A DNA stretch of 57,553 bases from Spirochaetaceae bacterium. Its GTDB lineage: Bacteria > Spirochaetota > Spirochaetia > SZUA-6 > Bin103. How positions within the stretch are numbered: the first letter of the stretch is position 1; every line of letters starts with the position of its first letter. The notes beneath the pieces are model-generated. The model saw only the letters and a list, made by a program, of their open reading frames with translations, ran no database searches and was not told the origin of the DNA. The position numbers and the translations under genes were made by a program. Positions 9,452 to 56,622 of this stretch are shown here, one piece after another. Location of the stretch: positions 1 through 57,553 of the forward strand of contig JAPPNY010000243.1 of assembly GCA_028818385.1 (NCBI GenBank), given 5' to 3'.

Positions 9452-9455
9452 CCCC

Positions 9456-37974: not shown

Positions 37975-38006
37975 TTGACAAGGCGATCATGCTTGATGTA
38001 TCAAGC
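37975..38006 (+). promoter_or_regulatory. Promoter with perfect palindromic operator for the Argonaute operon
   Basis: TTGACA (37975-37980) is a consensus -35 box. About 17 bases on, a -10-like GTATCA (37998-38003) lies inside the perfect dyad GCTTGAT-GT-ATCAAGC (37991-38006). The first gene starts at 38011 and encodes an XRE repressor-like protein, so autorepression through this site is likely. Confidence 0.7.
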
Positions 38007-38010
38007 GTCC

Positions 38011-38367
38011 ATGGCCACACGAATGGACAGGTTGGGACAGATGCTGGCCGATGGCCGCAGAGGGGTGAAGCTAACCCTACGGGCAGTCGAGGACACAGTC
38101 GGCATCTCAAACGCCTATCTCAGTCAACTTGAGAACGGCAAAGTCCGGTCACCCTCACCGGTGGTTCTGCACAAGTTGAGCGAACTATACCGGCTGCCAT
38201 ACGCGACCGTGATGCTGGAGGCTGGCTATCCGGTTCCAAAGAACGTGAGGCCAAGCTCCCAAGGGAGCCGGCTCGCGGCACGAGTCGGGAAAGTGACTGA
38301 AGACGAGGAAGACGCGCTCGTCGAGTACCTGATGTTCCTGCGATCTAGGCCAAAGCGGGGGGAGTGA
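38011..38367 (+). CDS. XRE-family helix-turn-helix regulator of the Argonaute operon
   Basis: The 118-aa protein starts at ATG 38011 (MATRMDRLGQMLADGRRG). Its XRE domain (LTLRAVEDTVGISNAYLSQL, then ENGKVRSPSPVVLHKLSELY) is followed by a short C-terminal helical segment (EDEEDALVEYLMFLRSR). The palindromic promoter lies immediately upstream. The next gene starts 3 bp after its stop with GGGGGGAG as ribosome-binding site, so it is the first gene of the low-GC operon. It most likely senses or limits expression of the nuclease/Argonaute genes. Confidence 0.87.
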   Translation: MATRMDRLGQMLADGRRGVKLTLRAVEDTVGISNAYLSQLENGKVRSPSPVVLHKLSELYRLPYATVMLEAGYPVPKNVRPSSQGSRLAARVGKVTEDEEDALVEYLMFLRSRPKRGE

Positions 38368-38370
38368 GTC

Positions 38371-39315
38371 ATGGTCTGGTCCGTCTCCACGGCGAGGATG
38401 TTTGAGCGCTGCCAGCGTCAGTGGTTCTATGCGACCAAGATTGCGAGTGCGCGTGCAAGAGACCACGTTCGTCAGCGAGCCTACCGACTGAGCAAGCTGC
38501 AGAGCGTAAGTGGGTGGAGGGGAAGTGTGGTAGATCAAGTGTTGAGCAACGACGTGATACCGGCCATCGGTCGCGGGGTCTCAGTCTCGAAGGACGTGGC
38601 AATCAGTTCCGCGATGAGAACGTTCGACCGACAGCTCGACATCGCTCGTCAGCATCGTATTATGGATGCGGATGTAAGGCCGAGTAGTCGCCGAGGTGAG
38701 CTGATAGCGCTCCACTGCCTTGAATACCAAGGCGAGGTCGACGAAGACGAGATCGGGCGAGCCAGGGACGAGGTCGCGAGCGCGATCGAGGCGTTCTTCG
38801 AGATGGACGACCTGATTGCACGATTGCGGAGAGCCGACCGCTTGATTTCCCAACGTCTCATTTCCTTCGAGCACTCGAAAGTCACGGTACGGGCCGTGCC
38901 CGATGTGATCGCGTTTTTCAGAACGGACCCGCCGGCGATAATCGACTGGAAAGTCCATGCCTTCGGCTGGCGGGACGCTTGGTTACAACTCGCCGTGTAC
39001 GCGTGCGCTCTTGAGCGCTGCAATCCGCACAAAGACTTTCCGGTAACGTCGCACACGTTCGACGCCACCGATGTCGACTTACTGGAAGTGCAATTGCTTA
39101 GTCGCACGGTCAGAAGCCACCAGCTTGAGGACGAGCACTTCTCGCGGGCAGAAGCGTACATAGCACAGAGTGCGGAAGCCATGAACCTCGCGGCAGGTGC
39201 GTTCCATAGCGCGGCGACGAGCCTGGATCCTTTTCAGTATCCGGTTGCCTATTATCCCGAAACATGTCAACGCTGTGTTTACCGATCGTTATGCTGGGAG
39301 GAAGGCGAGCAGTAA
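38371..39315 (+). CDS. Cas4/AddB-like Fe-S PD-(D/E)XK nuclease
   Basis: The 314-aa protein starts MVWSVSTARMFERCQRQWFY. The first Cys (C14) and C-terminal C299, C302 and C308 (CQRCVYRSLC) give the four-cysteine Fe-S cluster layout of Cas4 and AddB nucleases. The PD-(D/E)XK core is visible as VPDVIAF (D178), IIDWK (D192, K194) and the RecB-type QLAVYA helix (Q206, Y210). It should cut or trim DNA ends. The stop overlaps the Argonaute start (TAATG), so both are made together. Base composition is markedly lower in GC than the flanks. It is not part of a CRISPR locus, since no cas1/cas2 or array is present. Confidence 0.88.
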   Translation: MVWSVSTARMFERCQRQWFYATKIASARARDHVRQRAYRLSKLQSVSGWRGSVVDQVLSNDVIPAIGRGVSVSKDVAISSAMRTFDRQLDIARQHRIMDADVRPSSRRGELIALHCLEYQGEVDEDEIGRARDEVASAIEAFFEMDDLIARLRRADRLISQRLISFEHSKVTVRAVPDVIAFFRTDPPAIIDWKVHAFGWRDAWLQLAVYACALERCNPHKDFPVTSHTFDATDVDLLEVQLLSRTVRSHQLEDEHFSRAEAYIAQSAEAMNLAAGAFHSAATSLDPFQYPVAYYPETCQRCVYRSLCWEEGEQ

Positions 39316-41696
39316 TGGATATCCAAACGAATATATACCCCGTGCTGAACATCAGTGACCTAGGCTTTCGCTACGATACATACCGGATTCGGAACCTAAG
39401 GCGCGACCAGGACGAGTATTTTCAGAACAAAGAAGGCTTGGTTCGGATCCTGAGCTTCAAGTTGGGCGCGCCCGTGCAGGTCGTAGAATACGCAGGTGAG
39501 CCATCCTTGATCGTCCCGAGTGACACCTTGGACGTTCCTGAAAAGGTGTCTTTGGTGCGTACGGCTGTATACCTCGAGCCCACAGCTCGGAATACAGAGA
39601 TCGACTTCTCGCTTCGTACTTCGGAGAACAACGCGATCTGCCTGAGGATCGTACAGTTCATCCTTCAGTCACCACTCTGGAACAACGTCCGTCTGTGGCA
39701 GCCGTCTGCAGGGGGGCCGTTCTTCGAAAAGAAAGTCGCGGAAGACGAGAAGGGCATTGGCCGGTATTCCGGCTTTTCCGTGCGAGCCGTTGTTGGGCCA
39801 TCGGGCCGCATAGGACTGTGCGTAGACGTTCGAAGCAAGTTCCTCCGAACTGAATCCGTTCCGGTGCGACTAGATCGGTTGAGGTTCCGGGAGTTCGACG
39901 GTAAGCACTGCGTATACCGTTACGGGCATCGATGGTACGAGATTCGCGTAGACGGCCTGTCAGATCTGACCGTTAGCGAAGAAGAGATAAACCGGGGAGC
40001 AAAGACAATATCGCTACTTGATTACATAACCGATCAGTGCCGGAAGCCGCTGCCGGCGGACTTGGCCGCGTTGCCTCATGACGCATCGGTCCTGCGGTAC
40101 AGGAACAACCGCGGTGAGGATCGGGGCGCGGCCGCAGGTTTGTGCTACCCAGTCTGTGACAACCAGCAGGAAGTGGCGCGCCGGCTTCATTCACGTGCAA
40201 TTGTTGCTCCTGACTCTCGACATGCGATGATAAACTCAGCCGTGCAGCGTTACCTCAAGAGTCTACGGTTCAAAGATGTGGTGCTCCGGGTTGGTGACCG
40301 GGCGGAGCGAGTTCCCCGGCAGAACTTCCTGGTTCCTGATATGGAGTTTGGTAAGGGCTGCAAACTGAGCGTGCGGGGGACTGATGGTACCAATCACGTG
40401 AAGCTTGACAACCTTGGAAGCAGACGCATAGGTCTTTTGCGACGTGACGATGTGGGATTCTTCGTTAAGGAGCCGTTTAGGAAACAATACTTGGTTTTGC
40501 CGGAGTCCGTGTTTGAGAGCTGGGGCTCGCGGTACATTCGTGATCTAACGCAGGCGGTTGACGAGCTCTATCCGGAGGGACGTGGATACAGACCAGAGAT
40601 CGTCACCTACCGGGATCGCGGCCCGCGGACTTACCGCGACCAAGGAGCGGCGATCATTGATTCGCTAAACGATCATCTCCTGGATTCGGCTTACGCATTG
40701 GTGATGGTGCACCGGACCAACGATCAACGGTTGAGAGATCATGATGCCCTAGCTGCGATGGTAATTCGGGAGTTGCGGGAGCGCGACATTTACAGCGCAG
40801 TAAGCCACTCGGAGATGGGAAGGCGTTGCTACATCACAGCATCCGATGAGAAAGGGGAGCTGTGTTACAGAATTGCCCCGCGGGAGAGGAGCAGGTTTCT
40901 TGGTTATTTGCGCAATGTCGCTCTCAACAAGATTCTGCTCACGAATGGTTTTTGGCCGTTCGTACTGGCATCTAAAACGCACGCGGATGTCACCATCGGC
41001 ATTGACGTCAAGAATCAGACCGCAGGCTTCACCGTTGTTGGTAGTGGCGGCGCATTCGTGCGAACCGTCTGTAGCGTGTCCCGGCAGAAGGAGAAGCTAC
41101 TCAAAGCTCAAGTCACATCGCATCTTATGGATCTGCTGCGTGACGAACATGTGCGGATGGGGGCGCCGTTGCGCGCGGTTGTGATTCATCGGGACGGAAG
41201 GTGCTGGCAACCGGAGATTGATGGTGCATCTGCCGCGATATCATCCCTCAAGAGAGATGGGATCGTCGCAAGCGACGGGACTCTGACAATTCTCGAGATT
41301 GCAAAGTCCGCGCCTGTTCGACTGCGTCTGTTTGACTTTCGAAGGGGTCATCGTGGGCGAACGGATGTCGGTAACCCGGAGGTGGGAACGTACACAGTCA
41401 TCAACGGCATAGACGGGTTCTTGTGTTCCACCGGCCGCGCGTTCCCTCGTAGGGGAAGTGTGCAACCGCTGCATGTCCGGTGTGTGACGGAAGGTTTGCC
41501 TTTCAAGGAAGCTCTTGAGGATGTTTACGCTTTGACAACGTTGGCATGGACACGTCCGGAAGACTGTTCGAGGTATCCCATTACGCTGAAGCTGACGGAT
41601 CGATGGCTCGGCGAGGAGGCTAGCGAGTTCGACGAGGATTCTCTCAGGTACGTCGAGGAAGACGTACAAGAACCGGAAAGGAGAGCAAGCGCATGA
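39315..41696 (+). CDS. Long prokaryotic Argonaute with apparently complete DEDD site
   Basis: The 793-aa protein shows the Argonaute layout. There are N/L1-like segments (residues 1-150) and a PAZ-like region (about 150-290). A MID domain (about 430-550) ends in LRNVALNKILLTNGFWPFVL. The PIWI domain follows (about 555-765). PIWI landmarks are VTIGIDVKN (D564), SRQKEKL (E593, candidate finger glutamate), VVIHRDGR (D627), LEIAKSAPVRL, NPEVGTYTV, GFLCSTGRAF, DVYALTTLAW, and YPITLKLTDRW (D762). These give a plausible DEDD tetrad, so it is predicted to be a guide-directed nuclease. ATG 39315 has GGGAGG upstream; the open frame before it is a shadow of the nuclease gene. It overlaps both neighbours by 1-4 bp. 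A 25-residue acidic tail follows PIWI. Classification from motifs only. Confidence 0.85.
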   Translation: MDIQTNIYPVLNISDLGFRYDTYRIRNLRRDQDEYFQNKEGLVRILSFKLGAPVQVVEYAGEPSLIVPSDTLDVPEKVSLVRTAVYLEPTARNTEIDFSLRTSENNAICLRIVQFILQSPLWNNVRLWQPSAGGPFFEKKVAEDEKGIGRYSGFSVRAVVGPSGRIGLCVDVRSKFLRTESVPVRLDRLRFREFDGKHCVYRYGHRWYEIRVDGLSDLTVSEEEINRGAKTISLLDYITDQCRKPLPADLAALPHDASVLRYRNNRGEDRGAAAGLCYPVCDNQQEVARRLHSRAIVAPDSRHAMINSAVQRYLKSLRFKDVVLRVGDRAERVPRQNFLVPDMEFGKGCKLSVRGTDGTNHVKLDNLGSRRIGLLRRDDVGFFVKEPFRKQYLVLPESVFESWGSRYIRDLTQAVDELYPEGRGYRPEIVTYRDRGPRTYRDQGAAIIDSLNDHLLDSAYALVMVHRTNDQRLRDHDALAAMVIRELRERDIYSAVSHSEMGRRCYITASDEKGELCYRIAPRERSRFLGYLRNVALNKILLTNGFWPFVLASKTHADVTIGIDVKNQTAGFTVVGSGGAFVRTVCSVSRQKEKLLKAQVTSHLMDLLRDEHVRMGAPLRAVVIHRDGRCWQPEIDGASAAISSLKRDGIVASDGTLTILEIAKSAPVRLRLFDFRRGHRGRTDVGNPEVGTYTVINGIDGFLCSTGRAFPRRGSVQPLHVRCVTEGLPFKEALEDVYALTTLAWTRPEDCSRYPITLKLTDRWLGEEASEFDEDSLRYVEEDVQEPERRASA

Positions 41697-42058
41697 GTGA
41701 CCCGGCGCTTTATACGAACCTTTACACCAGACTTCGCGATTGTGCAGAGTTGATTGATGATGTGATAGTGGATCTTGAAGCGCGATCGACGGCTGAACCA
41801 AGCCGAAGAACGGCCTTGAGTGGGCTATTGCGTGCGTTGGGTACAGCTCCACAATCGAATATCGATGCCACAATGGTGTGGAACGTGCTGCGGGAGCAGA
41901 GGGCGGTAATGAGGGCCGACTGGAAGGGTGTCGCGGACGCACTCGAGCGAGGCGACAATTCGGTTCGCGTGATTGAACGCCTGGAGCATCTCGCGCGTGT
42001 TCTCGAGGTTGAGCGCGCGGAGATACACTCGAGGATTCATGGGCCGAATGCTAGGTGA
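41693..42058 (+). CDS. Small helical protein of the Argonaute operon, function unknown
   Basis: The 121-aa protein starts at ATG 41693, overlapping the Argonaute stop (ATGA). It is predicted almost wholly alpha-helical, for example LYTRLRDCAELIDDVIVDLE and VIERLEHLARVLEVERAEIH, with no recognisable catalytic motif. Its end overlaps the start of the metallopeptidase gene by about 20 bp. The coupling and helical character suggest a structural partner or inhibitor of one of the neighbours, in the manner of a small antitoxin or adaptor. That is inference; I recognise no family. Confidence 0.75.
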   Translation: MSDPALYTNLYTRLRDCAELIDDVIVDLEARSTAEPSRRTALSGLLRALGTAPQSNIDATMVWNVLREQRAVMRADWKGVADALERGDNSVRVIERLEHLARVLEVERAEIHSRIHGPNAR

Positions 42059-43184
42059 GTACTTCGAAGCTACTGTGCCGCAGTTGATCGAACGTGCAAG
42101 GTTGCTGAAAGGAAAGATCCCGCGGGGGTTGCCAAGAGACTACGAGACGCTAATTAGCGCATGCGCGCGTGCGCTCGATGAAATTGTACAACGGCTCTAC
42201 CAGTTGGAGACTGTCGCGAGATCGGGGAGGGCCGCTCTGCAACACGCACAACTGCGAAAATTCCGACGGGCCGTCGCCGATCTCGATGACGTCGAGACGA
42301 CAGGGATCGCGGTCTTGAATCGAGCCCATGATGACGATCACCAAGCGAATCGACTCCTGTATCGTATTTGCAAGGAAATCGGGTACCCGTGGGTGACACC
42401 TACGGTAACGACACTGTCGACGGGCTACTTCTATATCCATACAAAGCTAAACCTGATGTTCATTCCACCTGCGGAAGGTAGTTTCCTGTTGCATCTTCCG
42501 GACTTGTATCACGAGCTCGCACATCCACTGCTCACACGACAGAACCATCCCGTACTCGAGAGGTTTGTCGATTGTTTCTTGAGGTGTACCGCAAAGACGC
42601 ACGATTACTTTGCAGGCAGACGGGAGACGGAAGAGACCCGGCGTGGGCCGCGGGGATTTAAGGAGAGTATCGATCGTTGGGAGATTCTCTGGACAAAGTA
42701 TTGGCTGATGGAGTTCTTCTGCGACTTATTCGCTGCGGCGACGTTGGGCCCAGCGTTCGCATGGGCTCACTTGCATCTGTATCTCAAGATGGGAGCTGAT
42801 GCATTTACAGTGTCGTCTGCAGTCCATCCTGCGGATGATGCGCGGATGCGCGCTGTGTTGGGGGCGTTACGTCTATTGGGATTCGGCGATTCTGCGCATG
42901 AGATCGAGACCCGTTGGAACGATGCGTCGCGATTATCGGACAGCTCTGGGAACGCGGATTACATACACTGCTATCCGGACGAGCTGATCAACTTCGTCGT
43001 GGAGAAGGCAATCGAGGGCGTAGGAGCCATGGGCTGCCGTCTCGCGTCGGAGGACACTGACGATTGCATTCACTCGTTGCTGAACGGCGCTTGGAGGAGA
43101 TTTTGGACAGATCCCGGAGAGTACCATCGTTGGGAGGCGGAGGCAGTGAAAGCGAATATAGTCGGGGATAGGGGCGACGGTTAG
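42039..43184 (+). CDS. HExxH metallopeptidase-like protein of the Argonaute operon
   Basis: The 381-aa protein has an N-terminal helical half (1-115). A zincin core follows: LHLPDLYHELAHPLL with H158-E159-L160-A161-H162, and a downstream EFFCD (E225, D229) matching the ExxxD third-ligand motif of gluzincins. A conserved-looking SSAVHPADDARMR (H263) comes about 35 residues later. This order (HExxH, ExxxD, HP..xxR) is seen in uncharacterised bacterial zinc peptidase-like proteins. No signal peptide or membrane span is visible, so it acts in the cytosol. It is the last gene of the operon with Argonaute and the Fe-S nuclease. ATG 42039 is preceded by GAGG; ATG 42048 is an alternative. Substrate unknown. 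Confidence 0.82.
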   Translation: MGRMLGEYFEATVPQLIERARLLKGKIPRGLPRDYETLISACARALDEIVQRLYQLETVARSGRAALQHAQLRKFRRAVADLDDVETTGIAVLNRAHDDDHQANRLLYRICKEIGYPWVTPTVTTLSTGYFYIHTKLNLMFIPPAEGSFLLHLPDLYHELAHPLLTRQNHPVLERFVDCFLRCTAKTHDYFAGRRETEETRRGPRGFKESIDRWEILWTKYWLMEFFCDLFAAATLGPAFAWAHLHLYLKMGADAFTVSSAVHPADDARMRAVLGALRLLGFGDSAHEIETRWNDASRLSDSSGNADYIHCYPDELINFVVEKAIEGVGAMGCRLASEDTDDCIHSLLNGAWRRFWTDPGEYHRWEAEAVKANIVGDRGDG

Positions 43185-43522: not shown

Positions 43523-46393
43523 ATGGAGCGCAAGAAACTTGTCGAGGTGGCGCTTCCGCTGGAGGCCATCAACGCAGCGGCGGCGCGGGAGAAGTCGATT
43601 CGCCACGGACATCCGAGCACCTTGCACTTGTGGTGGGCGCGGCGCCCGCTGGCGGCGGCACGGGCGGTGCTGTTCGCGCAGATGGTGGACGATCCGGCCA
43701 GCCGGCCGGAGCTGTTTGCCACCGTGGAGGAACAGGATCGCGAACGCGAGCGGCTGTTCCGCCTGATCGAGGAGCTGGTGAAGTGGGAGAACACGATCAA
43801 CGAAACGGTATTACAGGCGGCTCGCGACGAGATCCGGGAGGGCTGGCGACGTACGTGTGCTGACAACGCGGACCATCCACGCGCTGCCGAGCTGTTTGAT
43901 CCGGAACGGCTGCCCGCGTTCCACGACCCGTTTGCCGGTGGGGGGTCGCTGCCGCTGGAGGCGCAACGCCTGGGGATGGAGGCGCATGCGAGTGACCTGA
44001 ATCCGGTGGCGGTGCTGATCAACAAGGCAATGATCGAGATCCCGCCGAGGTTCGCCGCGCGGCCGCCGGTGAACCGCGAGTCACGGACGGACTCTGGTCT
44101 GGTGTCCGGCGATTGGAGAGGGGCGCAGGGGCTGGCCGAGGACGTGCGCTTCTACGGGCGGTGGATGCGGGACGAGGCGGAGAAGCGGATCGGGCACCTG
44201 TACCCGAAGGTTGAGATCACTGCAGACATGGTGGAGGAACGACCGGACCTGAAGCCATACGAGGCGCGGAAGCTGACCGTGATCGCGTGGCTGTGGGCGC
44301 GGACGGTGAAGAGTCCAAATCCGGCGTTTGCCGACGTGGACGTGCCACTGGCGTCGACGTTCATGCTGTCGAAGAAGATGGGCAAGGAGGTGTACGTCGA
44401 GCCGGTGATCGAGGGTCGGGAGTACCGGTTCACGGTGAAGGTGGGTACGCCACCGGATGCGGCAGGGGCCAGAGCCGGAACGAAGCTGTCACGCGGTGCA
44501 TTTCGATGCCTTATGTCGAGCGTGCCTATCAGGTACTCCTACATCGACGAAGAAGCAAATGCTGGACGAATGGGCGCGCGCTTGATGGCGATCGTGGTTC
44601 AGGGTGAAAGGGCGAGACTATACTTGTCTCCCACGGACAAAGCCGTTGCTGTCGCTCAGAGCGCAGAACCAGAGTGGAAACCCAACGCTCCCAGCCGTGG
44701 AACTTGGGCAAGTAACGCCCAAGGTCGACGATATGGATTCCGCACCTTCGGAGACTACTTCACTCGCCGGCAGCTTGTCGCGCTGACGACCTTTTCCGAT
44801 CTGGTGGGAGAGATGATGGAGCATGTCCGGCGCGACGCCGCAGCTGCGGGACTGACTGACGACGGCCGACCGCTGCGTGACGGGGGCACCTGCGCCACTG
44901 CGTATGCGGAGGCGGTAGCGGTGTATCTGGCTTGTGCCGTAAGCCGCATGGTCAATTACTCGGCGACTTTGTGTGTATGGAGTTCTCATCCGAAGGACGA
45001 ACTAGCAAAGCAGGTTTTCCTCCGGCAGGCGCTCGCTATGACGTGGGACTTCGCCGAGACCAATCCCTTTTCTTTAGCAGGAGGTACCTTCGCCGTTAAC
45101 ATCGACTACTTGGGAAAGGCGGTCACTCGATTACCTGGATGCGGGAAAGGAGTGTCGTCACAAGTAGATGCAACTCGCGATGGAGTGCGGAATCACGTGG
45201 TATCTACGGATCCGCCGTACTATGACAATGTCGGCTATGCGGACCTGTCGGACTTCTTTTACGTTTGGCTGAGACGCTCCCTAAAGCGATTATTCCCTGA
45301 TCTCTTTTTGACTCTTGCTGTGCCGAAGACCGACGAGCTCATCGCCAGCCCATACCGCCACGGGAGCAAGACCGCCGCGGAGAAGTTCTTCCTCGACGGT
45401 ATGACCCTGTCGCTGCGCCGTCTCGCAGCTCAGTCGCATCGCCTGTTCCCAGTCTATTACGCCTTCAAGCAGTCAGAGGATAAGGCGAACACTGGACCGA
45501 CCAGAACCGGCTGGGAGACATTCCTGGACGCCTTGATCGAATCCGGCTTCGCGATTACCGGCACATGGCCGCTGCGAACGGAACTCATTACCAATCTGAA
45601 GAAGAAATCGAGCGTCCTTGCTTCCAGTATCATCCTCGTGTGCCGCAAGCGCTCGGCGGACGCTCCGGTCACCACCCGCCGGGACTTCCTGACCGCGCTC
45701 AAGGCCGAGCTGCCTCCCGCACTGACCCAACTACAGCGCGGCAACATCGCCCCCGTCGACCTCGCGCAGGCGGCGATCGGGCCGGGGATGGCGGTTTACA
45801 CACGCTACGCGAAGGTACTCGACGCCTCGGGTAGCCATGTCTCGGTGGGGGATGCGCTGGCGCTGATCAATCAGACCCTGGACGAAATCCTGGCTGAGCA
45901 GGAGGGGGACTTCGACGCCGACAGTCGCTGGGCGCTGGTGTGGTTCGAGCAACACGGCTTCGACGCCGGTGACTACGGGGTTGCCGAGACCTTGTCCAAG
46001 GCCAAGAACACCAGCGTGGCAGGCATGGTGGATGCAGGGATCCTCCGCTCGGGGGGTGGGAAGGTTCGGCTGCTACGCCCGCAGGAGTTGCCGTCGGACT
46101 GGGATCCTGCGCGAGATGACCGTCTCACCGCATGGGAGACCGTCCATCACGTGATCCGCGTGCTGGAAAGCGGCGAGGAGGCCGCTGCCGGGCTGGTTCG
46201 CAAGCTGGGCGGCTTCGCCGAGGTCGCCCGCGAGCTGTGCTATCGCCTCTACACCGTGTGCGAGCGCAAGAAGCGCGCGGCGGAGGCGCTGGCGTACAAC
46301 GGGCTGGTGCAGAGCTGGCCGGAGATCAGCCGGCTTGCGCGATCGGAAGCAACATCCGAACAGGCTGAGCTGTTTGCGGACGGTACAGGGTAG
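43523..46393 (+). CDS. DUF1156/COG1743-type adenine-specific DNA methyltransferase
   Basis: The 956-aa protein begins with the DUF1156 hallmark AAREKSIRHGHPSTLHLWWA, then RRPLAAARAVLFAQ. It contains the SAM-binding motif I DPFAGGGSLPLEAQRLG (about 135-150) and the catalytic motif IV STDPPYYDNVGYADLSDFFY (about 561-580, DPPY class). This indicates an N6-adenine (or N4-cytosine) methylase. COG1743 proteins recur in defence islands with ATPases and SNF2 helicases (often with DUF499). Here two ATPases and a helicase follow. Start ATG 43523 is the first before the conserved block. A middle section (about 44.5-45.6 kb) has lower GC than its ends, suggesting recombination within the gene. Confidence 0.88.
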   Translation: MERKKLVEVALPLEAINAAAAREKSIRHGHPSTLHLWWARRPLAAARAVLFAQMVDDPASRPELFATVEEQDRERERLFRLIEELVKWENTINETVLQAARDEIREGWRRTCADNADHPRAAELFDPERLPAFHDPFAGGGSLPLEAQRLGMEAHASDLNPVAVLINKAMIEIPPRFAARPPVNRESRTDSGLVSGDWRGAQGLAEDVRFYGRWMRDEAEKRIGHLYPKVEITADMVEERPDLKPYEARKLTVIAWLWARTVKSPNPAFADVDVPLASTFMLSKKMGKEVYVEPVIEGREYRFTVKVGTPPDAAGARAGTKLSRGAFRCLMSSVPIRYSYIDEEANAGRMGARLMAIVVQGERARLYLSPTDKAVAVAQSAEPEWKPNAPSRGTWASNAQGRRYGFRTFGDYFTRRQLVALTTFSDLVGEMMEHVRRDAAAAGLTDDGRPLRDGGTCATAYAEAVAVYLACAVSRMVNYSATLCVWSSHPKDELAKQVFLRQALAMTWDFAETNPFSLAGGTFAVNIDYLGKAVTRLPGCGKGVSSQVDATRDGVRNHVVSTDPPYYDNVGYADLSDFFYVWLRRSLKRLFPDLFLTLAVPKTDELIASPYRHGSKTAAEKFFLDGMTLSLRRLAAQSHRLFPVYYAFKQSEDKANTGPTRTGWETFLDALIESGFAITGTWPLRTELITNLKKKSSVLASSIILVCRKRSADAPVTTRRDFLTALKAELPPALTQLQRGNIAPVDLAQAAIGPGMAVYTRYAKVLDASGSHVSVGDALALINQTLDEILAEQEGDFDADSRWALVWFEQHGFDAGDYGVAETLSKAKNTSVAGMVDAGILRSGGGKVRLLRPQELPSDWDPARDDRLTAWETVHHVIRVLESGEEAAAGLVRKLGGFAEVARELCYRLYTVCERKKRAAEALAYNGLVQSWPEISRLARSEATSEQAELFADGTG

Positions 46394-46464
46394 GGACAGG
46401 ATGATGAGGTGGGCCGCATCGAAACACGCCGTACGCGAAGACGCTGCCCGCCCGGGTTGAGGAA

Positions 46465-48024
46465 ATGTCGCTGATCGCCAGGGAGCTGCAGGAGGTCTGG
46501 GACGCGCTGGGTGCGGGCAACGGCCACCGCGACGACGCGCTGGCGGAGGTGCGGATCAGGAACCTGCGCGGCATCCGGGATCTGCGGGTGCCCTTCGACT
46601 ATCCTGTCTGTGTGCTTGCCGGCCCCAACGGGTGCGGCAAGTCGACGGTCCTTCTGGCGTGCGCGTGCGCCTATCGTGTGCCCGGTCGCGGACCGCGGGA
46701 TTTCGTTCCCAGTACGCTCTTTCCGAACTTCACCAATCGGCAGCAGCCGACATGTTCCGACAGTGCGCCGCGGACCGAGCTCGAATTCCATTACCTGCAC
46801 CGAGGTGACCGCGTCTCCATGGCGTGGCGGCGCGGCAAGTCCTGGAACCGGAGCTTCCTGGGCCGCGCGGGTGGCACGCAGCCGGAGCGGCAGGTCTACC
46901 TGCGGACGCTCGCCAACCTGACCAATCCGTCGGAGGTGCGCAGCATCTTGCAGCTCGCCAGGAAACCGTTCCAGACGCGGGCGCTCAGCCCCGAGATGCT
47001 GATCTTCGCCCATCGTGTCCTGCCGTGGCGCTACCGCAGCCTGTCCGTCATCAGCGCCAGCGCGGCGAACGACCTTCTGTTCGCGGCGCTGGACGATGCC
47101 GCGAACACCGGCTACTCGGAGTTCCACATGTCGTCCGGGGAACGGAGCATCCTGCGTATCTCGAAGGACATCTCCCGTCTCCGGAACGGGCTGGTCCTCG
47201 TCGACGAGGTGGACACCGGTCTCCATCCCCATACCCAGCAGCAGACCATGCTCGAGTTGCAGCGCAGCGCTCTGCGCAACGACCTGCAGATCATCGTCGC
47301 CTCACACAGTCCCGTAATCCTGGACAGCGTGCCTCCTCGCGCTCGCATCTTTCTGGAACGCGACGAGACGGCCGGAGACGTTCGCCGCGCGCCTCTCTAC
47401 CGCGACATCTTTCAGAAGGCGCTCTACGGCCAGTCCCGAGACCAACTGTCGGTGCTCTGTGAGGATGAGGTCGCAGAGGGCGTGATACGCGGCGTGCTCG
47501 ACGTGCTGAACGTCAAGCTCGGACTGCGCCACGAGGACGTGATCATCGGCAGGAATACCGGCCGCAACGAGTTTGCGGGCCACGTGCGCACGCTGGGGAA
47601 GTTCGCCAAGCTCCGGGACTTCATCCTGGTACTGGACGGCGACTCCCGTGACCTGGAGCGTTCGTTGCAGGCAATCGCCGAGGAATATGGGCACCACGTG
47701 CAGCCGCTGTTTCTTCCCGGAGATGCTCCTCCGGAGCAGTGGCTTTGGGAGATGATCGGACGGCGACGGGACGACTATGCGAGCAGGCTCGGTCTGGCAG
47801 GCTCCGACCTGGAGCGCGCGATGCATGACCTGCAGCAACTCGTGGAGGGATCGGTGCGGCAGCGCGACGCCGCGAAAGCGACCGTCGGAGCACTGGCTTC
47901 CGATCTCGGGCGAACCGTTCCCGACCTCGCCCGGATCGTCGGCCAGCGGGAAGCCGAGGCGAACGCCATTCCCGAACTGCTGGCGGCCATGACCGAACAG
48001 ATCAACGCCTGGAGGCGGCTATAG
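46465..48024 (+). CDS. OLD-like ATPase with TOPRIM domain
   Basis: The 519-aa protein has an ABC-type ATPase head with Walker A GPNGCGKST (53-61), signature SSGER (223-227), Walker B LVLVDEVDTGLHP (E248) and switch His in VASHSP (H281). A TOPRIM-like nuclease domain follows, with E333 in VLCEDEVAEGV and the D391/D393 pair in FILVLDGDSRD. This is the layout of the OLD/GajA/AriA group of anti-phage proteins, in which ATPase dimers control DNA or RNA cleavage. It lies 71 bp after the methyltransferase in the same direction, and a convergent ATPase gene ends 1 bp from its stop. Confidence 0.85.
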   Translation: MSLIARELQEVWDALGAGNGHRDDALAEVRIRNLRGIRDLRVPFDYPVCVLAGPNGCGKSTVLLACACAYRVPGRGPRDFVPSTLFPNFTNRQQPTCSDSAPRTELEFHYLHRGDRVSMAWRRGKSWNRSFLGRAGGTQPERQVYLRTLANLTNPSEVRSILQLARKPFQTRALSPEMLIFAHRVLPWRYRSLSVISASAANDLLFAALDDAANTGYSEFHMSSGERSILRISKDISRLRNGLVLVDEVDTGLHPHTQQQTMLELQRSALRNDLQIIVASHSPVILDSVPPRARIFLERDETAGDVRRAPLYRDIFQKALYGQSRDQLSVLCEDEVAEGVIRGVLDVLNVKLGLRHEDVIIGRNTGRNEFAGHVRTLGKFAKLRDFILVLDGDSRDLERSLQAIAEEYGHHVQPLFLPGDAPPEQWLWEMIGRRRDDYASRLGLAGSDLERAMHDLQQLVEGSVRQRDAAKATVGALASDLGRTVPDLARIVGQREAEANAIPELLAAMTEQINAWRRL

Positions 48025-48025
48025 G

Positions 48026-49492
48026 CTACGCGACGCCTGTCCTGATCGCTTCAATCCGGTTGGCTATCTTCGCCCAGTCGTTGTAGAGCGACTCGGTGAT
48101 CTCGCCATAGCCGGCCGGGAAGTTGCCGGCCTCCCTGTCCAGGACCATTTCCTCGACGGTGGATCCCGAGCCGTCGTCGGACGGCGTGAACATCCACGCA
48201 CCCACGTCCGCTGAAGACAGGGCGACCTCCGATCCCGCGATTCCCTTCCGCGCGTTCTCGGGAAGCTCCGACAGCCGGACCAGGTTGGCCAGAGCCTCCA
48301 ATATCCACTCACTATGGGTCGTCAGCATCACGCGCACGCCGGAGCGAACCAGGCGGGCCAACTCGCCGGCGAACGCTGCCTGCATCGCGGGATGCAGATG
48401 CGACTCCGGCTCCTCGATGATCAGGACGTCGCTGGGGCGAACCAGATGCCGCAGATACAGCACCACAGGAGCCAGTTCGGAAATCATGGAAGAGGTACGC
48501 ATCAGCGGCAGGTCGGTGTCCCAATCGGTTGGACGATAGGCGAACGACGGATAGCCGGTCTCGGACTGCTTCAGCCGAATGGCTCCCGCCAGGAAGTTCT
48601 TTTCCAGACGACGTGCCATCCTGTCCGGCACCTTCTTTTTTCTCTGACCCATCGCGATAAGATCATTCAGGAAGTCGGCCAGTACTCCGGACAGGATGGG
48701 CACACGGGTCGAACGACGCAGCCCGGCTGTCGTTGCGCCTTGGATCAGTGTGCTGACGACCACCTGGTGACTGTGCATCACGCCGGTGCGATCGGCCGGC
48801 AGGTAGTACGCGCCGCGAATCAGGGGACCCATCACCGAATTGCACATGACATCCAGGAGTCCGTACAGCAGGAATAGTCCACCTCGTTCCTCATCCGGGA
48901 TACCGCCGCTCGTCGCCGGCAGCGTCGGCACGTGTCCGGATAGCCGTGCAGGTCCGCTGCCGAATTCGAAGGTGTATCGCGTCTGCTCGTCGCCGAGCGA
49001 TGCCGGGATGCTGATGGTCGCCGTGGATCCTTCTTCGGTGCTTCCCCGACGGACCAGATCGTCCATGTCATCGACCCCGAAGCAGCGGCTCACTTCCCGC
49101 GCGAAGTGCTCCTCGGCGCCGGTGAGTTCCTCCAACGCCGTGCGAATAGTTCTCGCCAAGTCGTCGGGCAGTGGCCGGCGTTGTTCCTTGCCGCCGGTAG
49201 ACCACCACTCGGCGATGCGGGCTGCAAGCTTCTCTTCGTCCGGCAGCGCGGTGACCGATGCATCGGAGAACCAATACGTGCGCCGCTGAAGATCGGACTC
49301 GGACCGAACGGGCGGGCCGAAGCACCGGTGCAAGGCGTACACGAGCATCGCGAGGTAGGACTTGCCGGTGTTGCTTGGTCCGGCGAACACCGTGAGCGGG
49401 CGCACGTCAACGCTCGCACGCACGATAGGACCGAAGTCGGCTACATCGATCCGGTAGTCGCCATCGTGGGCGCGAGCTTCGCTTCGACTCAC
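48026..49492 (-). CDS. AAA/RecF-like ATPase (OLD-type head, no TOPRIM)
   Basis: The 488-aa ATPase has Walker A GPSNTGKS (38-45) after the typical ADFGPIVRASVDVRPLTVFA strand pair, a Walker B DVLIIEEPESHLHPAMQ, and LTTHSEWILEAL as the switch region. There is no TOPRIM. The C-terminal region (GYGEITESLYNDWAKIANRI) is a typical ending for these AAA_15/AAA_21-type proteins. The GTG start at 49492 is the most upstream with no strong ribosome-binding site. It is on the opposite strand between the OLD-like ATPase and helicase genes, so it may be an independent insertion in the defence locus or a separately regulated component. Confidence 0.83.
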   Translation of the reverse strand: MSRSEARAHDGDYRIDVADFGPIVRASVDVRPLTVFAGPSNTGKSYLAMLVYALHRCFGPPVRSESDLQRRTYWFSDASVTALPDEEKLAARIAEWWSTGGKEQRRPLPDDLARTIRTALEELTGAEEHFAREVSRCFGVDDMDDLVRRGSTEEGSTATISIPASLGDEQTRYTFEFGSGPARLSGHVPTLPATSGGIPDEERGGLFLLYGLLDVMCNSVMGPLIRGAYYLPADRTGVMHSHQVVVSTLIQGATTAGLRRSTRVPILSGVLADFLNDLIAMGQRKKKVPDRMARRLEKNFLAGAIRLKQSETGYPSFAYRPTDWDTDLPLMRTSSMISELAPVVLYLRHLVRPSDVLIIEEPESHLHPAMQAAFAGELARLVRSGVRVMLTTHSEWILEALANLVRLSELPENARKGIAGSEVALSSADVGAWMFTPSDDGSGSTVEEMVLDREAGNFPAGYGEITESLYNDWAKIANRIEAIRTGVA

Positions 49493-49585
49493 CTGGAAAC
49501 TCCGAGGATTCTGAACGACCGCGTCGCCGAACGACGACCGCGAGCGGCATCGGGCGCCGGTCCGCAGTTTCCTACACCGGGGCGA

Positions 49586-49629
49586 TGTGCGCTACCCCGG
49601 CGGTGTGCGCTACCCCGGCGGTGTGCGCC
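49586..49629. repeat. 18-bp tandem repeat upstream of the helicase gene
   Basis: TGTGCGCTACCCCGGCGG occurs twice in tandem (49586-49603 and 49604-49621), followed by a partial third copy (TGTGCGCC). It lies in the 173-bp divergent region between the AAA ATPase and helicase genes, so it could hold regulatory sites or be a slippage-prone tract. Confidence 0.85.
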
Positions 49630-49665
49630 GGGATGCTCGGCACGTGAGCGGGTATCATCGCCGGA

Positions 49666-52600
49666 GTGAAGCTGGAAGACTTGCAGGCGCCGGCCGCAGT
49701 GCGCGGCATCGTGGCCGATTCCCTGGTCACGGTGGTGACCGCGCGCTGGATCGGCGCGGACGCGGTGGAACTCGTCTACCGGACGGCTGACGGCGAGCTG
49801 GGCAGCCAGATCCTCTACCGCGACGACGAAGCGCGGCTGGAGATCGTCGAGCAGGGACGGCCGTGGAGCTTCGACGGCGACGGCGATCTCTTTCGGCTGG
49901 TGTCGGAGGCGCTGCGCATCAACCTCGCCCATTTGTTCGACCCGGCGCTGGCGGTCCACACCTCGCAAGTGGAGCCGCTGCCGCATCAGATCACCGCGGT
50001 CTACGAGGCGATGCTGCCGCGGCAGCCGCTGCGGTTCCTGCTCGCCGACGATCCCGGTGCCGGCAAGACCATCATGACCGGCCTGCTGATGAAGGAGCTG
50101 ATCGCCCGCGGCGACCTGCAGCGCTGTCTGGTGGTCTGTCCGGGCAGCCTGGCCGAGCAGTGGCAGGACGAGCTGTACCGGCGCTTCCACCTCGGCTTCG
50201 AGATCCTCACCAACGACAAGCTGGCCGCGGCGCGCACCGGAAACTGGTTCCTGGAGACCGACCTCGCCATCGCCCGGCTGGACAAGCTGGCGCGTGACAC
50301 CGCGCTGCAGGAGAAGCTGCAGGCGCCCGACTGCCGCTGGGACCTGGTGGTGTGCGACGAGGCGCACAAGATGTCGGCGACCTTCACCGGGGGCGAGATC
50401 CGCTACACCAAGCGCTACCACCTGGGGCAGTTGCTCGGCGGCCTGACCCGTCACTTCCTGCTGCTGACCGCCACGCCGCACAACGGCAAGGAGGAGGACT
50501 TCCAGCTCTTCATGGCGCTGCTGGACGGCGACCGCTTCGAGGGACGGTTCCGGGACGGCGTACACATGGCGGACGTGTCCGACCTGATGCGGCGGATGGT
50601 GAAGGAGCGCCTGCTCAAGTTCGAGGGCACGCCGCTGTTTCCCGAGCGCGTCGCCCACACCATCCCGTATCGGCTCTCCGATGAGGAGGCGCACCTCTAC
50701 AACGAGGTCAGCAACTACGTGCGCGAGGAGTTCAACCGCGCCGAGGCGCTGGAGAACAACCAGCGCGCCGGTGCCGTGGGGTTCGCGCTGACGCTGCTGC
50801 AACGCCGGCTGGCGTCCTCGCCGGAGGCGATCTACCAGTCGCTGCGGCGGCGCCGGGAGCGGCTGGATAGCCGGCTGCGCGAGCTGGAGCTGCTGCGCCG
50901 GGGCGGTCAGGCCTTGGCCCGCATCGGGCTGTCGCGCGACATCGAGCTGGACGCCGACGAGTTCGAGGACCTGGAGGACGCGCCGGCCGACGAGCAGGAG
51001 CAGGCGGCCGAGGAGATCCTCGACCAGGCGACGGCGGCCCGGTCGATCGCGGAGCTGAAGACCGAGATCGGGACGCTGCGGCAGGTGGAGCAGATCGCGC
51101 ACCGGGTGCGGCGCAGCGGCAACGACGCGAAGTGGCAGCAACTCACGGGGCTGCTCGACGAGATCCTGCCTTCCGATGGCACGGCGCGCTCGACCGCACA
51201 GGAGGGACATGCGCAGAAGCTGGTCATCTTCACCGAGCACCGCGACACGCTGGCGTATCTGCGCGGGCGCATCGCCACGGTGCTCGGGCGCGAGCAGGCG
51301 ATCGTGGTGATCCACGGCGGCATGGGGCGCGAGGAGCGCAGCAAGGCGCAGGAGGCGTTCCGCCACGATCCGGGCGTGCAGATCCTGCTGGCGACCGACG
51401 CGGCGGGCGAGGGGATCAACCTGCAGCGCGCCCACCTGATGGTGAACTACGACCTGCCGTGGAACCCGAACCGGCTGGAGCAGCGCTTCGGCCGCATCCA
51501 CCGGATCGGCCAGACCGAGGTGTGCCACCTGTGGAACCTGGTCGCGGAGGAGACGCGCGAGGGCGACGTCTACCGCCGGCTGCTGGAGAAGCTGGAGCAG
51601 GCGCGCGAGGCGCTCGGCGGGCAGGTGTTCGACGCGCTCGGCAAGCTGCAGTTCTCCGGCCGGCCGCTGCGCGACCTGCTGATGGAGGCGATCCGCTACG
51701 GGGAGCAGCCGGAGGTGCGCGCGCGGCTGACCACGGTGCTGGATGACACCCTCGACCGCGGGAAGCTGCAGGAGCTGCTGGACGATCAGGCGCTGGCGCC
51801 GGATGCCATGGACGCCACGCGCGTGCAGCGGGTGCGGGAGGAGATGGAGCGGGCGGCGGCACGGCGGCTGCAGCCGCACTACATCGAGTCGTTCTTTCGC
51901 GCGGCGTTCGCGCGCCTGGGCGGGTCGCTCCGGCAGCGGGAGCCGCGGCGCTACGAGATCACCCACGTGCCGGGCGCGGTGCGCAGCCGCGACCGGCTGA
52001 TCGGCACGGGCGAGCCGGTGGTGGCGCGCTACGAGCGCATCGCCTTCGAGAAGGGGCTGCTGTCCCCGCCGGGCAAGGCGCCGGCGGAGTTCCTCTGTCC
52101 GGGGCATCCGCTGCTGGACTCGGTGATCGACCTGACGCTGGAGCGCCATCGTGACCTGCTGAAGCGGGGCACGGTGCTGGTCGACGACCGGGACCCGGGA
52201 ACCGCGCCGCGCGTGCTTTTCTACCTGGAGCACGCCATCCAGGACGAGAGCCGCACGCGCAGTGGCGACCGGCGGGTGGTCTCGAAGCGGCTGCTCTACG
52301 TGGAGCTGGCCGAGGCTGAGGCGCCGCGCCACCTGCACTATGCGCCGTACCTGGACTACCGGCCGTTGGCCGAGGATGAGCCGGGCATCGATGCCATTCT
52401 GGAGCGGCCCGAGTGCGCTTGGGTCACCGGCGACCTGGAGCGCAAGGCGCAGGAGCACGCGGTCATCCACGTCGTTCCCGAGCACCTGCGGGAGATCAAG
52501 CCGGCCAGGATCGACCTCATCGGCAAGACGGAGGCCGCCGTCAAGGACCGGCTGACCAAGGAGATCGCCTACTGGGATCACCGCTTCCTCCAGATCCAGG

Positions 52601-53199
52601 CTCAGGAGCAGGCCGGCAAGCCCGGCGCCCGGCTGAACTCCGGCGAGGCGCGCCGCCGCGCCGAGGATCTGCGGACCCGGCTTCGCCAGCGGCTTAAGAG
52701 GCTCGAATTGGAGGCGAAGCTCTCGGCGCTGCCGCCGGTGGTCCTGGGCGGCGTGCTGGTCGTCCCGCGGGGCCTGATCGCGGCCATCAGCGGGAAGCCC
52801 GCCGAGCGCCAAGCGACCGATACCCAGGAATCCGCCGCGCGGGCGAGGGCGATCATCATGGAGACCGAGCGCACGCTCGGCTTCGAGCCCACCGACCGGG
52901 AGACCGAGAAGCTCGGCTACGACATCGAGAGCCGTATCCCCGGCACCGGCCGGTTACGGTTCATCGAGGTCAAGGGCCGCGTCCACGGCGCCGACACCAT
53001 CACGGTGACCCGAAACGAGATCCTTTACTCGATGAACAAGCCGGAGGACTACCGCCTGGCCATCGTCGAGTTCCTGGACGACGGCTCCCACCGCGTTCAC
53101 TACCTCCGCGAACCGTTCCACCGTGAGCCCGATTTCGACGCCTCCAGCGTCAACTACTCCTTCAGAGACCTCCTCGCCCGCGCCGAACCCCCGTCATAG
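49666..53199 (+). CDS. SNF2-family helicase with C-terminal DUF3883
   Basis: The 1177-aa protein has superfamily 2 motifs: LPHQITAV (Q-like), LLADDPGAGKTIM (Walker A, about 126-138), VVCDEAHKM (DEAH box), and LLTATPHNGKEED (motif III). In the C-terminal RecA lobe are ILLATDAAGEGINLQ and RFGRIHRIGQT (motifs V and VI). From about residue 1060 a DUF3883 domain follows (ETERTLGFEPTD ... RFIEVKGRV ... TVTRNE), whose EVKG resembles a degenerate PD-(D/E)XK core. Helicases of this type accompany COG1743 methylases in defence loci. The GTG start at 49666 follows the tandem repeats. Its last ~600 bp are duplicated in decayed form at 54603-55182. Confidence 0.88.
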   Translation: MKLEDLQAPAAVRGIVADSLVTVVTARWIGADAVELVYRTADGELGSQILYRDDEARLEIVEQGRPWSFDGDGDLFRLVSEALRINLAHLFDPALAVHTSQVEPLPHQITAVYEAMLPRQPLRFLLADDPGAGKTIMTGLLMKELIARGDLQRCLVVCPGSLAEQWQDELYRRFHLGFEILTNDKLAAARTGNWFLETDLAIARLDKLARDTALQEKLQAPDCRWDLVVCDEAHKMSATFTGGEIRYTKRYHLGQLLGGLTRHFLLLTATPHNGKEEDFQLFMALLDGDRFEGRFRDGVHMADVSDLMRRMVKERLLKFEGTPLFPERVAHTIPYRLSDEEAHLYNEVSNYVREEFNRAEALENNQRAGAVGFALTLLQRRLASSPEAIYQSLRRRRERLDSRLRELELLRRGGQALARIGLSRDIELDADEFEDLEDAPADEQEQAAEEILDQATAARSIAELKTEIGTLRQVEQIAHRVRRSGNDAKWQQLTGLLDEILPSDGTARSTAQEGHAQKLVIFTEHRDTLAYLRGRIATVLGREQAIVVIHGGMGREERSKAQEAFRHDPGVQILLATDAAGEGINLQRAHLMVNYDLPWNPNRLEQRFGRIHRIGQTEVCHLWNLVAEETREGDVYRRLLEKLEQAREALGGQVFDALGKLQFSGRPLRDLLMEAIRYGEQPEVRARLTTVLDDTLDRGKLQELLDDQALAPDAMDATRVQRVREEMERAAARRLQPHYIESFFRAAFARLGGSLRQREPRRYEITHVPGAVRSRDRLIGTGEPVVARYERIAFEKGLLSPPGKAPAEFLCPGHPLLDSVIDLTLERHRDLLKRGTVLVDDRDPGTAPRVLFYLEHAIQDESRTRSGDRRVVSKRLLYVELAEAEAPRHLHYAPYLDYRPLAEDEPGIDAILERPECAWVTGDLERKAQEHAVIHVVPEHLREIKPARIDLIGKTEAAVKDRLTKEIAYWDHRFLQIQAQEQAGKPGARLNSGEARRRAEDLRTRLRQRLKRLELEAKLSALPPVVLGGVLVVPRGLIAAISGKPAERQATDTQESAARARAIIMETERTLGFEPTDRETEKLGYDIESRIPGTGRLRFIEVKGRVHGADTITVTRNEILYSMNKPEDYRLAIVEFLDDGSHRVHYLREPFHREPDFDASSVNYSFRDLLARAEPPS

Positions 53200-53206
53200 G
53201 ATCCAA

Positions 53207-53362
53207 ATGAGGGTAGTGAAACGGTACGGTGCGTCGCGGGACCTCCTGCAGGATGTGCATCAATCTCCGGATCCGGATTGTGCGGACGGCGACCGGAGCA
53301 ACCTTCTGGAATTCCTCCGCAAAGCCCTTGGGGTCGAGCACTTCGACGATGACCGACGTTGA
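53207..53362 (+). CDS. Possible 51-aa small ORF ahead of the AlbA_2 gene
   Basis: ATG 53207 opens a short frame (MRVVKRYGASRDLLQDVHQS ...) ending SNLLEFLRKALGVEHFDDDR. It begins 7 bp after the helicase stop and overlaps the AlbA_2 gene start by 14 bp, as coupled small genes do. The ribosome-binding site is weak and I recognise no family; it could equally be leader sequence. Confidence 0.3.
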   Translation: MRVVKRYGASRDLLQDVHQSPDPDCADGDRSNLLEFLRKALGVEHFDDDRR

Positions 53363-56607: not shown

Positions 56608-56622
56608 CAGGCCGCCGAACCG

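What the first reader, a model, noticed from the sequence alone, without database searches (positions are those of the whole stretch)
37975..43184. Low-GC five-gene cassette built around a long prokaryotic Argonaute with an intact-looking catalytic site
The sequence shows an XRE regulator, an Fe-S PD-(D/E)XK nuclease, a 793-aa Argonaute (D564, E593, D627, D762), a 121-aa helical protein and a HExxH peptidase. They are joined by 3-20 bp gaps or overlaps, behind a palindromic promoter, in DNA visibly lower in GC than both flanks. Known pAgo partners include nucleases, SIR2, TIR and helicases. I do not recall a described system combining a Cas4/AddB-like nuclease and a cytosolic metallopeptidase with a long, catalytically competent pAgo. 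An attractive model is that Argonaute and the nuclease generate or use guides from invading DNA while the peptidase is a second, protein-cleaving effector or releases an inhibitor.
Basis: partly seen in the sequence, partly recalled or inferred. Interest (0 to 1): 0.95.

Follow-up and report, generated by a model that had tools for sequence, protein, structure and literature searches.

The report
Argonaute cassette with built-in protease module
This bacterial DNA holds a five-gene cassette, whose four core genes stand in the same order in all 20 copies analysed from about ten phyla, that joins an Argonaute of a kind predicted to cut RNA using DNA guides to a nuclease, a small protein and a predicted protein-cutting enzyme, and it is likely an immune system in which the Argonaute would switch the protease on.

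Summary
The Argonaute belongs with PliAgo/RslAgo, long Argonautes published as DNA-guided RNA cutters ("D-R pAgos", PMC9360449). That paper already describes the upstream Cas4-like nuclease and the HTH gene, so Argonaute plus nuclease is not new. The parts of it that I read do not mention the last two genes: a ~120-aa protein (HEL) and a 381-aa predicted metallopeptidase (PEP), which match no Pfam, NCBIfam, PADLOC or PHROGs family. Nuclease-Ago-HEL-PEP stand in this order in 20 of 20 analysed loci from about ten phyla, including the plasmid operon of RslAgo itself. Two loci with a sigma-70 gene in place of XRE also carry HEL-PEP. By profile and fold comparison PEP is an M48-like gluzincin rather than an ImmA/CapP-type (M78) peptidase. 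HEL-PEP also occurs without a neighbouring Argonaute in three Chloroflexota loci, so it is a module in its own right. XRE sits behind a conserved TGCTTGA-type operator that, in 15 cassette-bearing genomes, is nearly confined to the cassette. Best reading: a self-repressed immune operon in which DNA-guided RNA recognition likely licenses a dedicated protease. The protease's trigger and substrate are inferred, not shown.

The parts
37975..38007 (+). Promoter/operator: -35-like TTGACA at 37975-37980 and dyad TGCTTGATGTATCAAGC at 37990-38006, directly before the XRE start
   Evidence: Read; one such site in the window. Within 130 nt upstream of XRE, GCTTGA is present in 17 of 17 loci and GCTTGACA in 16 of 17 (the window is the miss); GCTTGACA is in 62 of 8500 random stretches of the same loci. 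Strict pattern in 15 genomes: 10 distinct sites, 8 at a cassette promoter, 1 at a second XRE beside a cassette, 1 elsewhere; reversed-pattern control 0.
38011..38367 (+). XRE-family regulator, 118 aa, likely autorepressor
   Evidence: HTH_3 E 5.9e-9; weak PADLOC capH match E 9.2e-6 and NCBIfam ClgR 6.1e-6, far below its cut-off; found in 17 of 20 loci.
38371..39315 (+). Cas4/AddB-like PD-(D/E)XK nuclease with four Fe-S-type cysteines, 314 aa
   Evidence: PDDEXK_1 E 1.9e-12; PADLOC Aga_Cas4-like_Nuc E 1e-106. C14, D178, D192-x-K194, Q206, C299, C302, C308 invariant in 18 of 18.
39315..41696 (+). Long Argonaute of the PliAgo (D-R pAgo) group, 793 aa, DEDD intact
   Evidence: PADLOC pAgo_II E 1e-276; profile matches PliAgo chains over 2-787 or 3-787 at 717-724 bits; DEDD and K759 in 20 of 20. 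Two of the 120 listed relatives are fused to the nuclease, P0004 and P0017.
41693..42058 (+). HEL: small, probably helical partner protein, 121 aa, no known family
Evidence: No Pfam, PADLOC, NCBIfam or PHROGs match. Between AGO and PEP in 20 of 20 loci; a HEL-like frame precedes PEP also in Ago-less loci.
42039..43184 (+). PEP: predicted M48-like gluzincin metallopeptidase with N-terminal helical bundle, 381 aa; HELAH at 158-162, E225-xxx-D229, H263-P264...R269
   Evidence: H158, E159, H162, E225, D229, H263, P264, R269 invariant in the 31 sequences, their counterparts in the 11; model pLDDT 90.5; domain model aligns best with gluzincins; profile-profile 94% to M48, 25% to M78.

Best explanation
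This is a likely horizontally spread immune cassette whose four core genes keep their order in 20 of 20 analysed loci, in which a PliAgo-group Argonaute with an intact DEDD site, predicted to cut RNA with DNA guides, likely works with a Cas4-like nuclease and would switch on a predicted M48-like protease through its small partner protein. Shown here: gene order, intact motifs in all three enzymes, the operator, largely matching Ago and PEP trees, and HEL-PEP as a pair that also exists without Ago. Inferred steps: (1) XRE binds the dyad over the -35/-10 region and keeps the operon nearly silent. (2) On invasion the nuclease makes or trims single-stranded DNA that becomes the 5'-phosphate guide. 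(3) Ago finds and cuts complementary invader transcripts. (4) Target recognition changes the Ago-HEL-PEP assembly and frees PEP, a soluble gluzincin held in check by HEL and/or its own N-terminal bundle. (5) PEP then cuts one or a few proteins, most likely a regulator (XRE here; the HTH-like protein beside the sigma factor in the sister branch) or a host protein, turning RNA recognition into a transcriptional or dormancy response.
For: Ago identity: profile match to PliAgo structures over nearly the full length. RslAgo (WP_013921749.1), shown biochemically to cut RNA with DNA guides (PMC9360449; section 6 read, accession), is itself the Ago of this cassette on pRUNSL03, followed by HEL and PEP. 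Unit: nuclease-AGO-HEL-PEP in 20 of 20 loci; in 5 of 5 plasmid records with a PEP match an Ago match lies 0.4-0.7 kb away. Distance correlation AGO-PEP 0.95 over 190 pairs, 0.93 within the 16 XRE loci. Ago and PEP trees share the deep split and the close groups W+L001, L018+L019 and Binatota-Nitrospirota-Latescibacterota-Rhizobium plasmid. Swappable regulator: XRE in 17, sigma-70 plus ~180-aa protein in 2, none found in 1, with HEL-PEP kept throughout. PEP: gluzincin by motifs, model and profile. Precedent for an RNA-activated protease that cuts a sigma-factor inhibitor beside an RNA-cutting effector: type III-E CASP (PMC10028731, passages).
Confidence: 0.45

Rival explanations
1. PEP is a derepressor: in response to invader or damaged DNA it cuts the XRE repressor and turns the Ago operon on, as CapP does to CapH and IrrE/PprI to DdrO (and ImmA to ImmR, recalled). 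Ago and nuclease are then the only effectors.
For: XRE is a small repressor-like protein (weak capH match) behind a conserved operator. In L011 and L016 a second XRE (43% and 46% identical to the cassette XRE) beside the cassette is followed by an ORF with an ImmA-like HExxH region (HETGH, HELGH); the L011 one is a PF06114 hit, the L016 one is my reading. CapH+CapP control immune operons by ssDNA-triggered cleavage (PMC13373217 passages; PprI, PMC10904395 passages).
Against: PEP is M48-like rather than M78. HEL-PEP persists where no XRE was found: L018, L019, L020 and the Ago-less stretches L037 and L038 and L110. XRE-PEP distance correlation is among the weakest of the cassette pairs (0.57; XRE-AGO 0.55; partial given AGO 0.19). 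The sigma-branch ~180-aa protein has only marginal HTH likeness.
Confidence: 0.3
2. PEP activates the nuclease by cutting it, like the nuclease-protease pairs of Hachiman, AVAST and canu; the nuclease then destroys DNA.
For: Nuclease and PEP are both in 20 of 20 loci; proteolytic activation of pro-nucleases recurs in bacterial immunity (PMC12799240, abstract and passages).
Against: Those nucleases are MBL-fold and the proteases trypsin-like or caspase. The Fe-S-type nuclease has no obvious gating extension (my reading). In two relatives nuclease and Ago are one chain.
Confidence: 0.1
3. HEL-PEP is a toxin-antitoxin-like addiction pair carried along by the cassette, with HEL as antitoxin and PEP as a growth-inhibiting protease, with no mechanistic tie to Ago.
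For: HEL lies directly before PEP in 20 of 20 loci, often with overlapping frames, and the pair exists without Ago.
Against: Retention in one position in 20 of 20 loci and largely matching trees are more than expected for a passenger; no match in 50,697 phage records, and in 72,556 plasmid records 5 matches, all beside an Ago.
Confidence: 0.12
4. The neighbours are chance company in a defence island.
For: The locus lies beside Hma-like genes.
Against: Same order in 20 of 20 loci from about ten phyla.
Confidence: 0.02

Closest known systems
D-R pAgo operons of the PliAgo group (PliAgo, RslAgo; PMC9360449)
   Same: Near full-length Ago similarity, DEDD and K759, upstream Cas4-like PD-(D/E)XK nuclease, HTH regulator; RslAgo's own operon is this cassette.
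   Different: The sections I read name only nuclease, HTH regulator or sigma-70 as partners; HEL and PEP are not mentioned (peptidase 0, protease 0 occurrences in the main text). I could not see its figures or supplements.
Type III-E CASP/Craspase (Cas7-11-Csx29-Csx30-sigma; PMC10028731)
   Same: Programmable RNA cutter encoded with a protease, small proteins and, in one branch here, a sigma-70 factor.
   Different: Argonaute with DNA guides instead of Cas7-11 with crRNA; M48-like metallopeptidase instead of TPR-CHAT; RNA-activated proteolysis not shown here.
CapH/CapP, DdrO/PprI (PMC13373217, PMC10904395)
   Same: Small HTH repressor and metallopeptidase in one defence or stress-response system.
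   Different: PEP is M48-like with an N-terminal helical bundle and a HEL partner; it is kept where XRE is absent.
M48 peptidases and minigluzincins (selecase, proabylysin)
   Different: None of 31 members matches a Pfam peptidase family; extra helical N-terminus and C-terminus.
Nuclease-protease pairs of Hachiman/AVAST/canu (PMC12799240)
   Same: Nuclease and protease in one immune locus.
   Different: Different nuclease and protease folds; no sign of a gated nuclease.

Membership tests
D-R pAgo, PliAgo group | Long pAgo with canonical DEDD tetrad | tested here: met
   41 of 41; 20 of 20
D-R pAgo, PliAgo group | Full-length relationship to PliAgo | tested here: met
   723.6 bits over 2-787 of the profile
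D-R pAgo, PliAgo group | MID pocket residues called absolutely conserved in the group (H498, Y530), and K759 | tested here: met
   Window: H498, Y531, K759; across loci H498 in 16 of 20 (missing in L018, L019, L020, L036), Y531 in 19 of 20, K759 in 20 of 20
D-R pAgo, PliAgo group | Remaining residues of the RHSY pocket (R467, S501) | tested here: not met
   Window has R467 but M501; R467 in 6 of 20, serine at 501 in 0 of 20. The paper claims absolute conservation only for the H and the Y, so this does not exclude membership
D-R pAgo, PliAgo group | Upstream PD-(D/E)XK nuclease and HTH regulator | tested here: met
D-R pAgo, PliAgo group | DNA-guided cleavage of RNA | not testable with these tools
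   Shown in print for RslAgo, which sits in the same cassette
CapH/CapP type regulator pair | M78 (ImmA/IrrE) peptidase | tested here: not met
   No PF06114 match among 31 members at E<=10; hhalign 25% over 14 columns against 94% over 166 for M48. Fold search neither supports nor excludes it
CapH/CapP type regulator pair | Peptidase cuts the HTH repressor | not testable with these tools
   Needs purified proteins
CASP/Craspase (type III-E) | TPR-CHAT protease with Cas7-11 effector | tested here: not met
   Proteins are Argonaute and an M48-like gluzincin; works-like claim only
CASP/Craspase (type III-E) | Target-RNA-activated proteolysis | not testable with these tools
   Proposed, not shown
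M48 peptidase family | HExxH, ExxxD third-ligand region, HP....R motif, profile similarity | tested here: met
   broad profile 94%, narrow profile 51%; against the broad profile 8 column-shuffled and 1 reversed control gave <=0.2%
M48 peptidase family | Recognised by the Pfam M48 model | tested here: not met
   0 of 31; so 'M48-like', not an M48 member

The most novel reading that the evidence does not exclude
The first Argonaute-guided, RNA-activated protease: DNA-guided recognition of an invader transcript by a D-R pAgo switches on the HEL-PEP protease, which cuts a transcription regulator (XRE in one branch, the HTH-like partner of sigma-70 in the other), an Argonaute counterpart of CRISPR Craspase that arose independently.
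Probability: 0.25. Interest if true: 0.95.

Novelty: new variant of a known kind. Interest (0 to 1): 0.77.

Why it matters
What DNA-guided, RNA-cutting Argonautes do in cells is an open question, raised as such by the authors of PMC9360449 (section 12). If such operons regularly carry a dedicated protease pair, the published biochemistry has looked at half of the system. It offers a direct test (RslAgo with its own HEL and PEP), a new family of soluble gluzincins, and possibly a programmable, RNA-triggered protease that needs only short DNA guides.

Tried and rejected
Full-length PEP model against PDB gave only helical-bundle matches in the listed rows apart from a weak selecase row, so I folded the peptidase domain alone and searched again: Foldseek still gave nothing at E<=0.001, but the VIA second look ranked metallopeptidases first. 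IrrE/ImmA structures were not listed there; that is no evidence of difference. Sequence search of PDB with the PEP profile: best E 0.021, helical proteins. Viral-contig scans with PEP and Ago profiles: no relatives. Phage records: no match. Contig-length matching of the two protein lists: 24 lengths shared between two lists cut at 120, only a hint. I first favoured a CapP/CapH-type switch; it was demoted after finding sigma-70 and regulator-less loci with HEL-PEP and the M48 likeness. TIOX110 upstream region: no XRE found. Literature searches for a pAgo-linked protease or peptidase: in a library of CC0/CC BY/CC BY-SA papers only; several lists were capped (20 of 4,989, 20 of 333, 20 of 45, 10 of 21), and the unlisted papers were not seen. 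Word counts in PMC9360449, PMC6299218, PMC2743648 and PMC11442185 were 0 for protease and peptidase; the single 'protease' in PMC10620215 is a reagent description. Supplements could not be read. Of PMC10904395, PMC10028731, PMC10620215, PMC13373217, PMC2743648, PMC11442185 and PMC6299218 I saw passages; of PMC12799240 the abstract, section list and passages.

Full report
What is there. Five co-directional genes lie at 38011-43184: XRE regulator, Cas4-like nuclease (NUC), long Argonaute (AGO), a 121-aa protein (HEL) and a 381-aa protein with HELAH (PEP). They are separated by 3 bp or overlap. GC is 0.55-0.59 against about 0.70 on the left and 0.60-0.67 on the right.

The Argonaute. PADLOC's pAgo_II model matches at 1e-276 and its Aga_Cas4-like_Nuc model matches the nuclease at 1e-106, so this pair is known. 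A profile of 41 sequences matches the crystallised PliAgo over 2-787 at 717-724 bits. PMC9360449 (outline, sections 6, 8 and 12 read, other passages) shows that PliAgo, RslAgo, PnyAgo and HpeAgo use DNA guides to cut RNA, and that their operons carry a Cas4-like nuclease plus an HTH regulator (PliAgo group) or a sigma-70 factor (PnyAgo group). In the window Ago the catalytic D564, E593, D627 and D762 and the guide-binding K759, H498, Y531 and R467 are present; the fourth MID residue is M501 instead of serine. Across the 20 loci R467 is kept in 6 and serine 501 in none; the paper claims absolute conservation only for the histidine and the tyrosine.

The nuclease. C14, C299, C302, C308 and D178, D192-x-K194, Q206 are invariant in 18 of 18, as expected for an active Cas4/AddB-type enzyme (family knowledge). 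Two of the 120 listed Ago relatives are single nuclease-Ago chains of 1109 and 1104 aa.

Conservation of the unit. One scan of genome contigs gave 16 loci, the plasmid collection 5 with near full-length matches, and genome surveys 2 more (L036, L044). With the window that is 24. Twenty were analysed. I dropped L002 (contig ends in HEL), L005 (near copy of L004), L007 (contig ends at the Ago) and L014 (the Ago is cut at the start of the contig). L005 and L014 do have HEL and PEP. In 20 of 20 NUC-AGO-HEL-PEP stand in this order (PEP of L016 is cut by the contig end; PEP of L006 may be broken); XRE is present in 17. L018 and L019 (Spirosoma and Emticicia plasmids) have a sigma-70 gene and a ~180-aa protein in its place; in L020 I found neither. 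The phyla are Pseudomonadota, Planctomycetota, Acidobacteriota, Verrucomicrobiota, Nitrospirota, Latescibacterota, Binatota, Cyanobacteriota, Chloroflexota and Bacteroidota; the window's own host is unknown to me. The Ago on pRUNSL03 (L017) is WP_013921749.1, the characterised RslAgo. The 2 remaining plasmid records with Ago matches are haloarchaeal, match over 30% of the query only, and have no PEP match.

How tightly PEP is tied to Ago. In four taxon samples (386, 385, 343 and 350 genomes; each includes one genome chosen because it holds the cassette) PEP matches at E below 1e-30 occur in 10 genomes. In 7 an Ago lies beside it; in 3 (G1187, G1128, G1283, the last with PEP fragments only) no Ago match exists in the genome. 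Three further weak matches of 83-87 residues (G631, G882, G1454) also have no Ago match. An Ago search of the same 343 Planctomycetota genomes found exactly the two genomes with full-length PEP, one of them the chosen centre. A scan of 50 genomes of the order of G1128 gave 4 with PEP: G1128, G1187, G1488 and the fragments of G1283.

HEL-PEP as a module. In the Ago-less stretches a HEL-like frame directly precedes PEP: L038 E 1.6e-5, L037 E 0.0025, L110 (contig of G1488) E 1.9e-4. No XRE match was found there. Near the pair lie two genes shared by all three, one with weak response-regulator likeness and one that I read as GHKL-like. So the pair can work without Ago, and probably was recruited by it, or the reverse.

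Regulation. Within 130 nt upstream of XRE, GCTTGA occurs in 17 of 17 loci and GCTTGACA, which carries the -35 TTGACA, in 16 of 17; the window is the exception. Random 130-nt stretches of the same loci hold GCTTGACA in 62 of 8500. A strict form of the dyad in 15 genomes gave 10 distinct sites: 8 at a cassette promoter, 1 near a second XRE beside a cassette, 1 elsewhere; the reversed pattern gave none. The pattern was written from these promoters, so its presence there is by construction; its rarity elsewhere is the result. Seven of the 15 genomes had no exact match. I infer autorepression. In L011 and L016 a second XRE is followed by an ORF with an ImmA-like HExxH region (the L011 one is a PF06114 hit), which keeps the derepressor rival alive.

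Spread. The Ago and PEP trees share the deep split and the groups W+L001, L018+L019 and Binatota-Nitrospirota-Latescibacterota-Rhizobium plasmid; other joins differ (L008+L017 only in the Ago tree), several inner branches are weak and some long branches meet. Distance correlations are highest for AGO-PEP (0.95 over 190 pairs; nuclease-AGO 0.94); XRE pairs are lowest. Such correlation shows co-inheritance, not contact.

Mechanism. What was kept in all 20 loci is nuclease, Ago, HEL and PEP; the regulator changes. With a biochemically proven DNA-guided RNA cutter in the same cassette, the most economical model is that RNA recognition by Ago controls PEP through HEL, with the regulator or a host protein as substrate. 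The parallel is type III-E CASP, where target RNA activates a protease that cuts a sigma-factor inhibitor (PMC10028731, passages). Guide making by the nuclease was already suggested by PMC9360449 (section 12). Steps 1-5 of the model are inferred.

Novelty. Argonaute with Cas4-like nuclease and HTH is published. I found no mention of HEL or PEP in the papers and searches named under Tried and rejected; figures and supplements were not seen, several result lists were capped, and subscription papers are mostly missing. I therefore call it a new variant of a known kind with a strong open question.

Noticed in passing
43523-53199: Hma-like genes directly downstream: HmaB (43523-46393), an ATPase of HEC-04/PtuA likeness (46465-48024), a divergent ATPase-like ORF (48026-49492, minus; my reading) and HmaA (49666-53199). 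In L010 HmaA- and HmaB-like genes flank the Ago cassette, and L015 has an HmaA-like gene nearby.
   Followed up: partly
52749-53194 and 54727-55177: The 3' end of the HmaA gene is duplicated at 90-95% identity on the far side of a Schlafen/AlbA_2-HATPase gene (53229-54587), as if that gene was inserted with a partial duplication.
   Followed up: partly
55543-57168: A one-chain XRE plus ImmA-type peptidase (spr1629 repressor/antitoxin-like, E 3.3e-31, under its cut-off; the HExxH is my reading) directly before an ORF that I read as a PIN-domain toxin.
   Followed up: partly
L011:4366-5638 and L016:3325-4557: A second XRE, 43-46% identical to the cassette regulator, is followed by an ImmA-like peptidase ORF beside the Ago cassette; the L011 one has the same operator nearby.
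   Followed up: partly
L017, L018 (annotated); L008, L011, L016 (my reading): Multiubiquitin/ThiF (E1-like) modules lie beside several Ago cassettes, suggesting shared defence islands.
   Followed up: no
L041:1201-4057, L042:8766-10097, L043:1950-3374 and 8821-10431: Longer proteins (about 420-560 aa) share the E...D...HP..R part of PEP, with no Pfam match in the one tested: PEP seems to be one branch of a larger gluzincin superfamily.
   Followed up: partly
L018:6472-7017, L019:6474-7016: The ~180-aa protein after the sigma-70 gene is related in the two loci (26% identity) and has marginal HTH likeness; it could be an anti-sigma factor or a degenerate XRE.
   Followed up: partly
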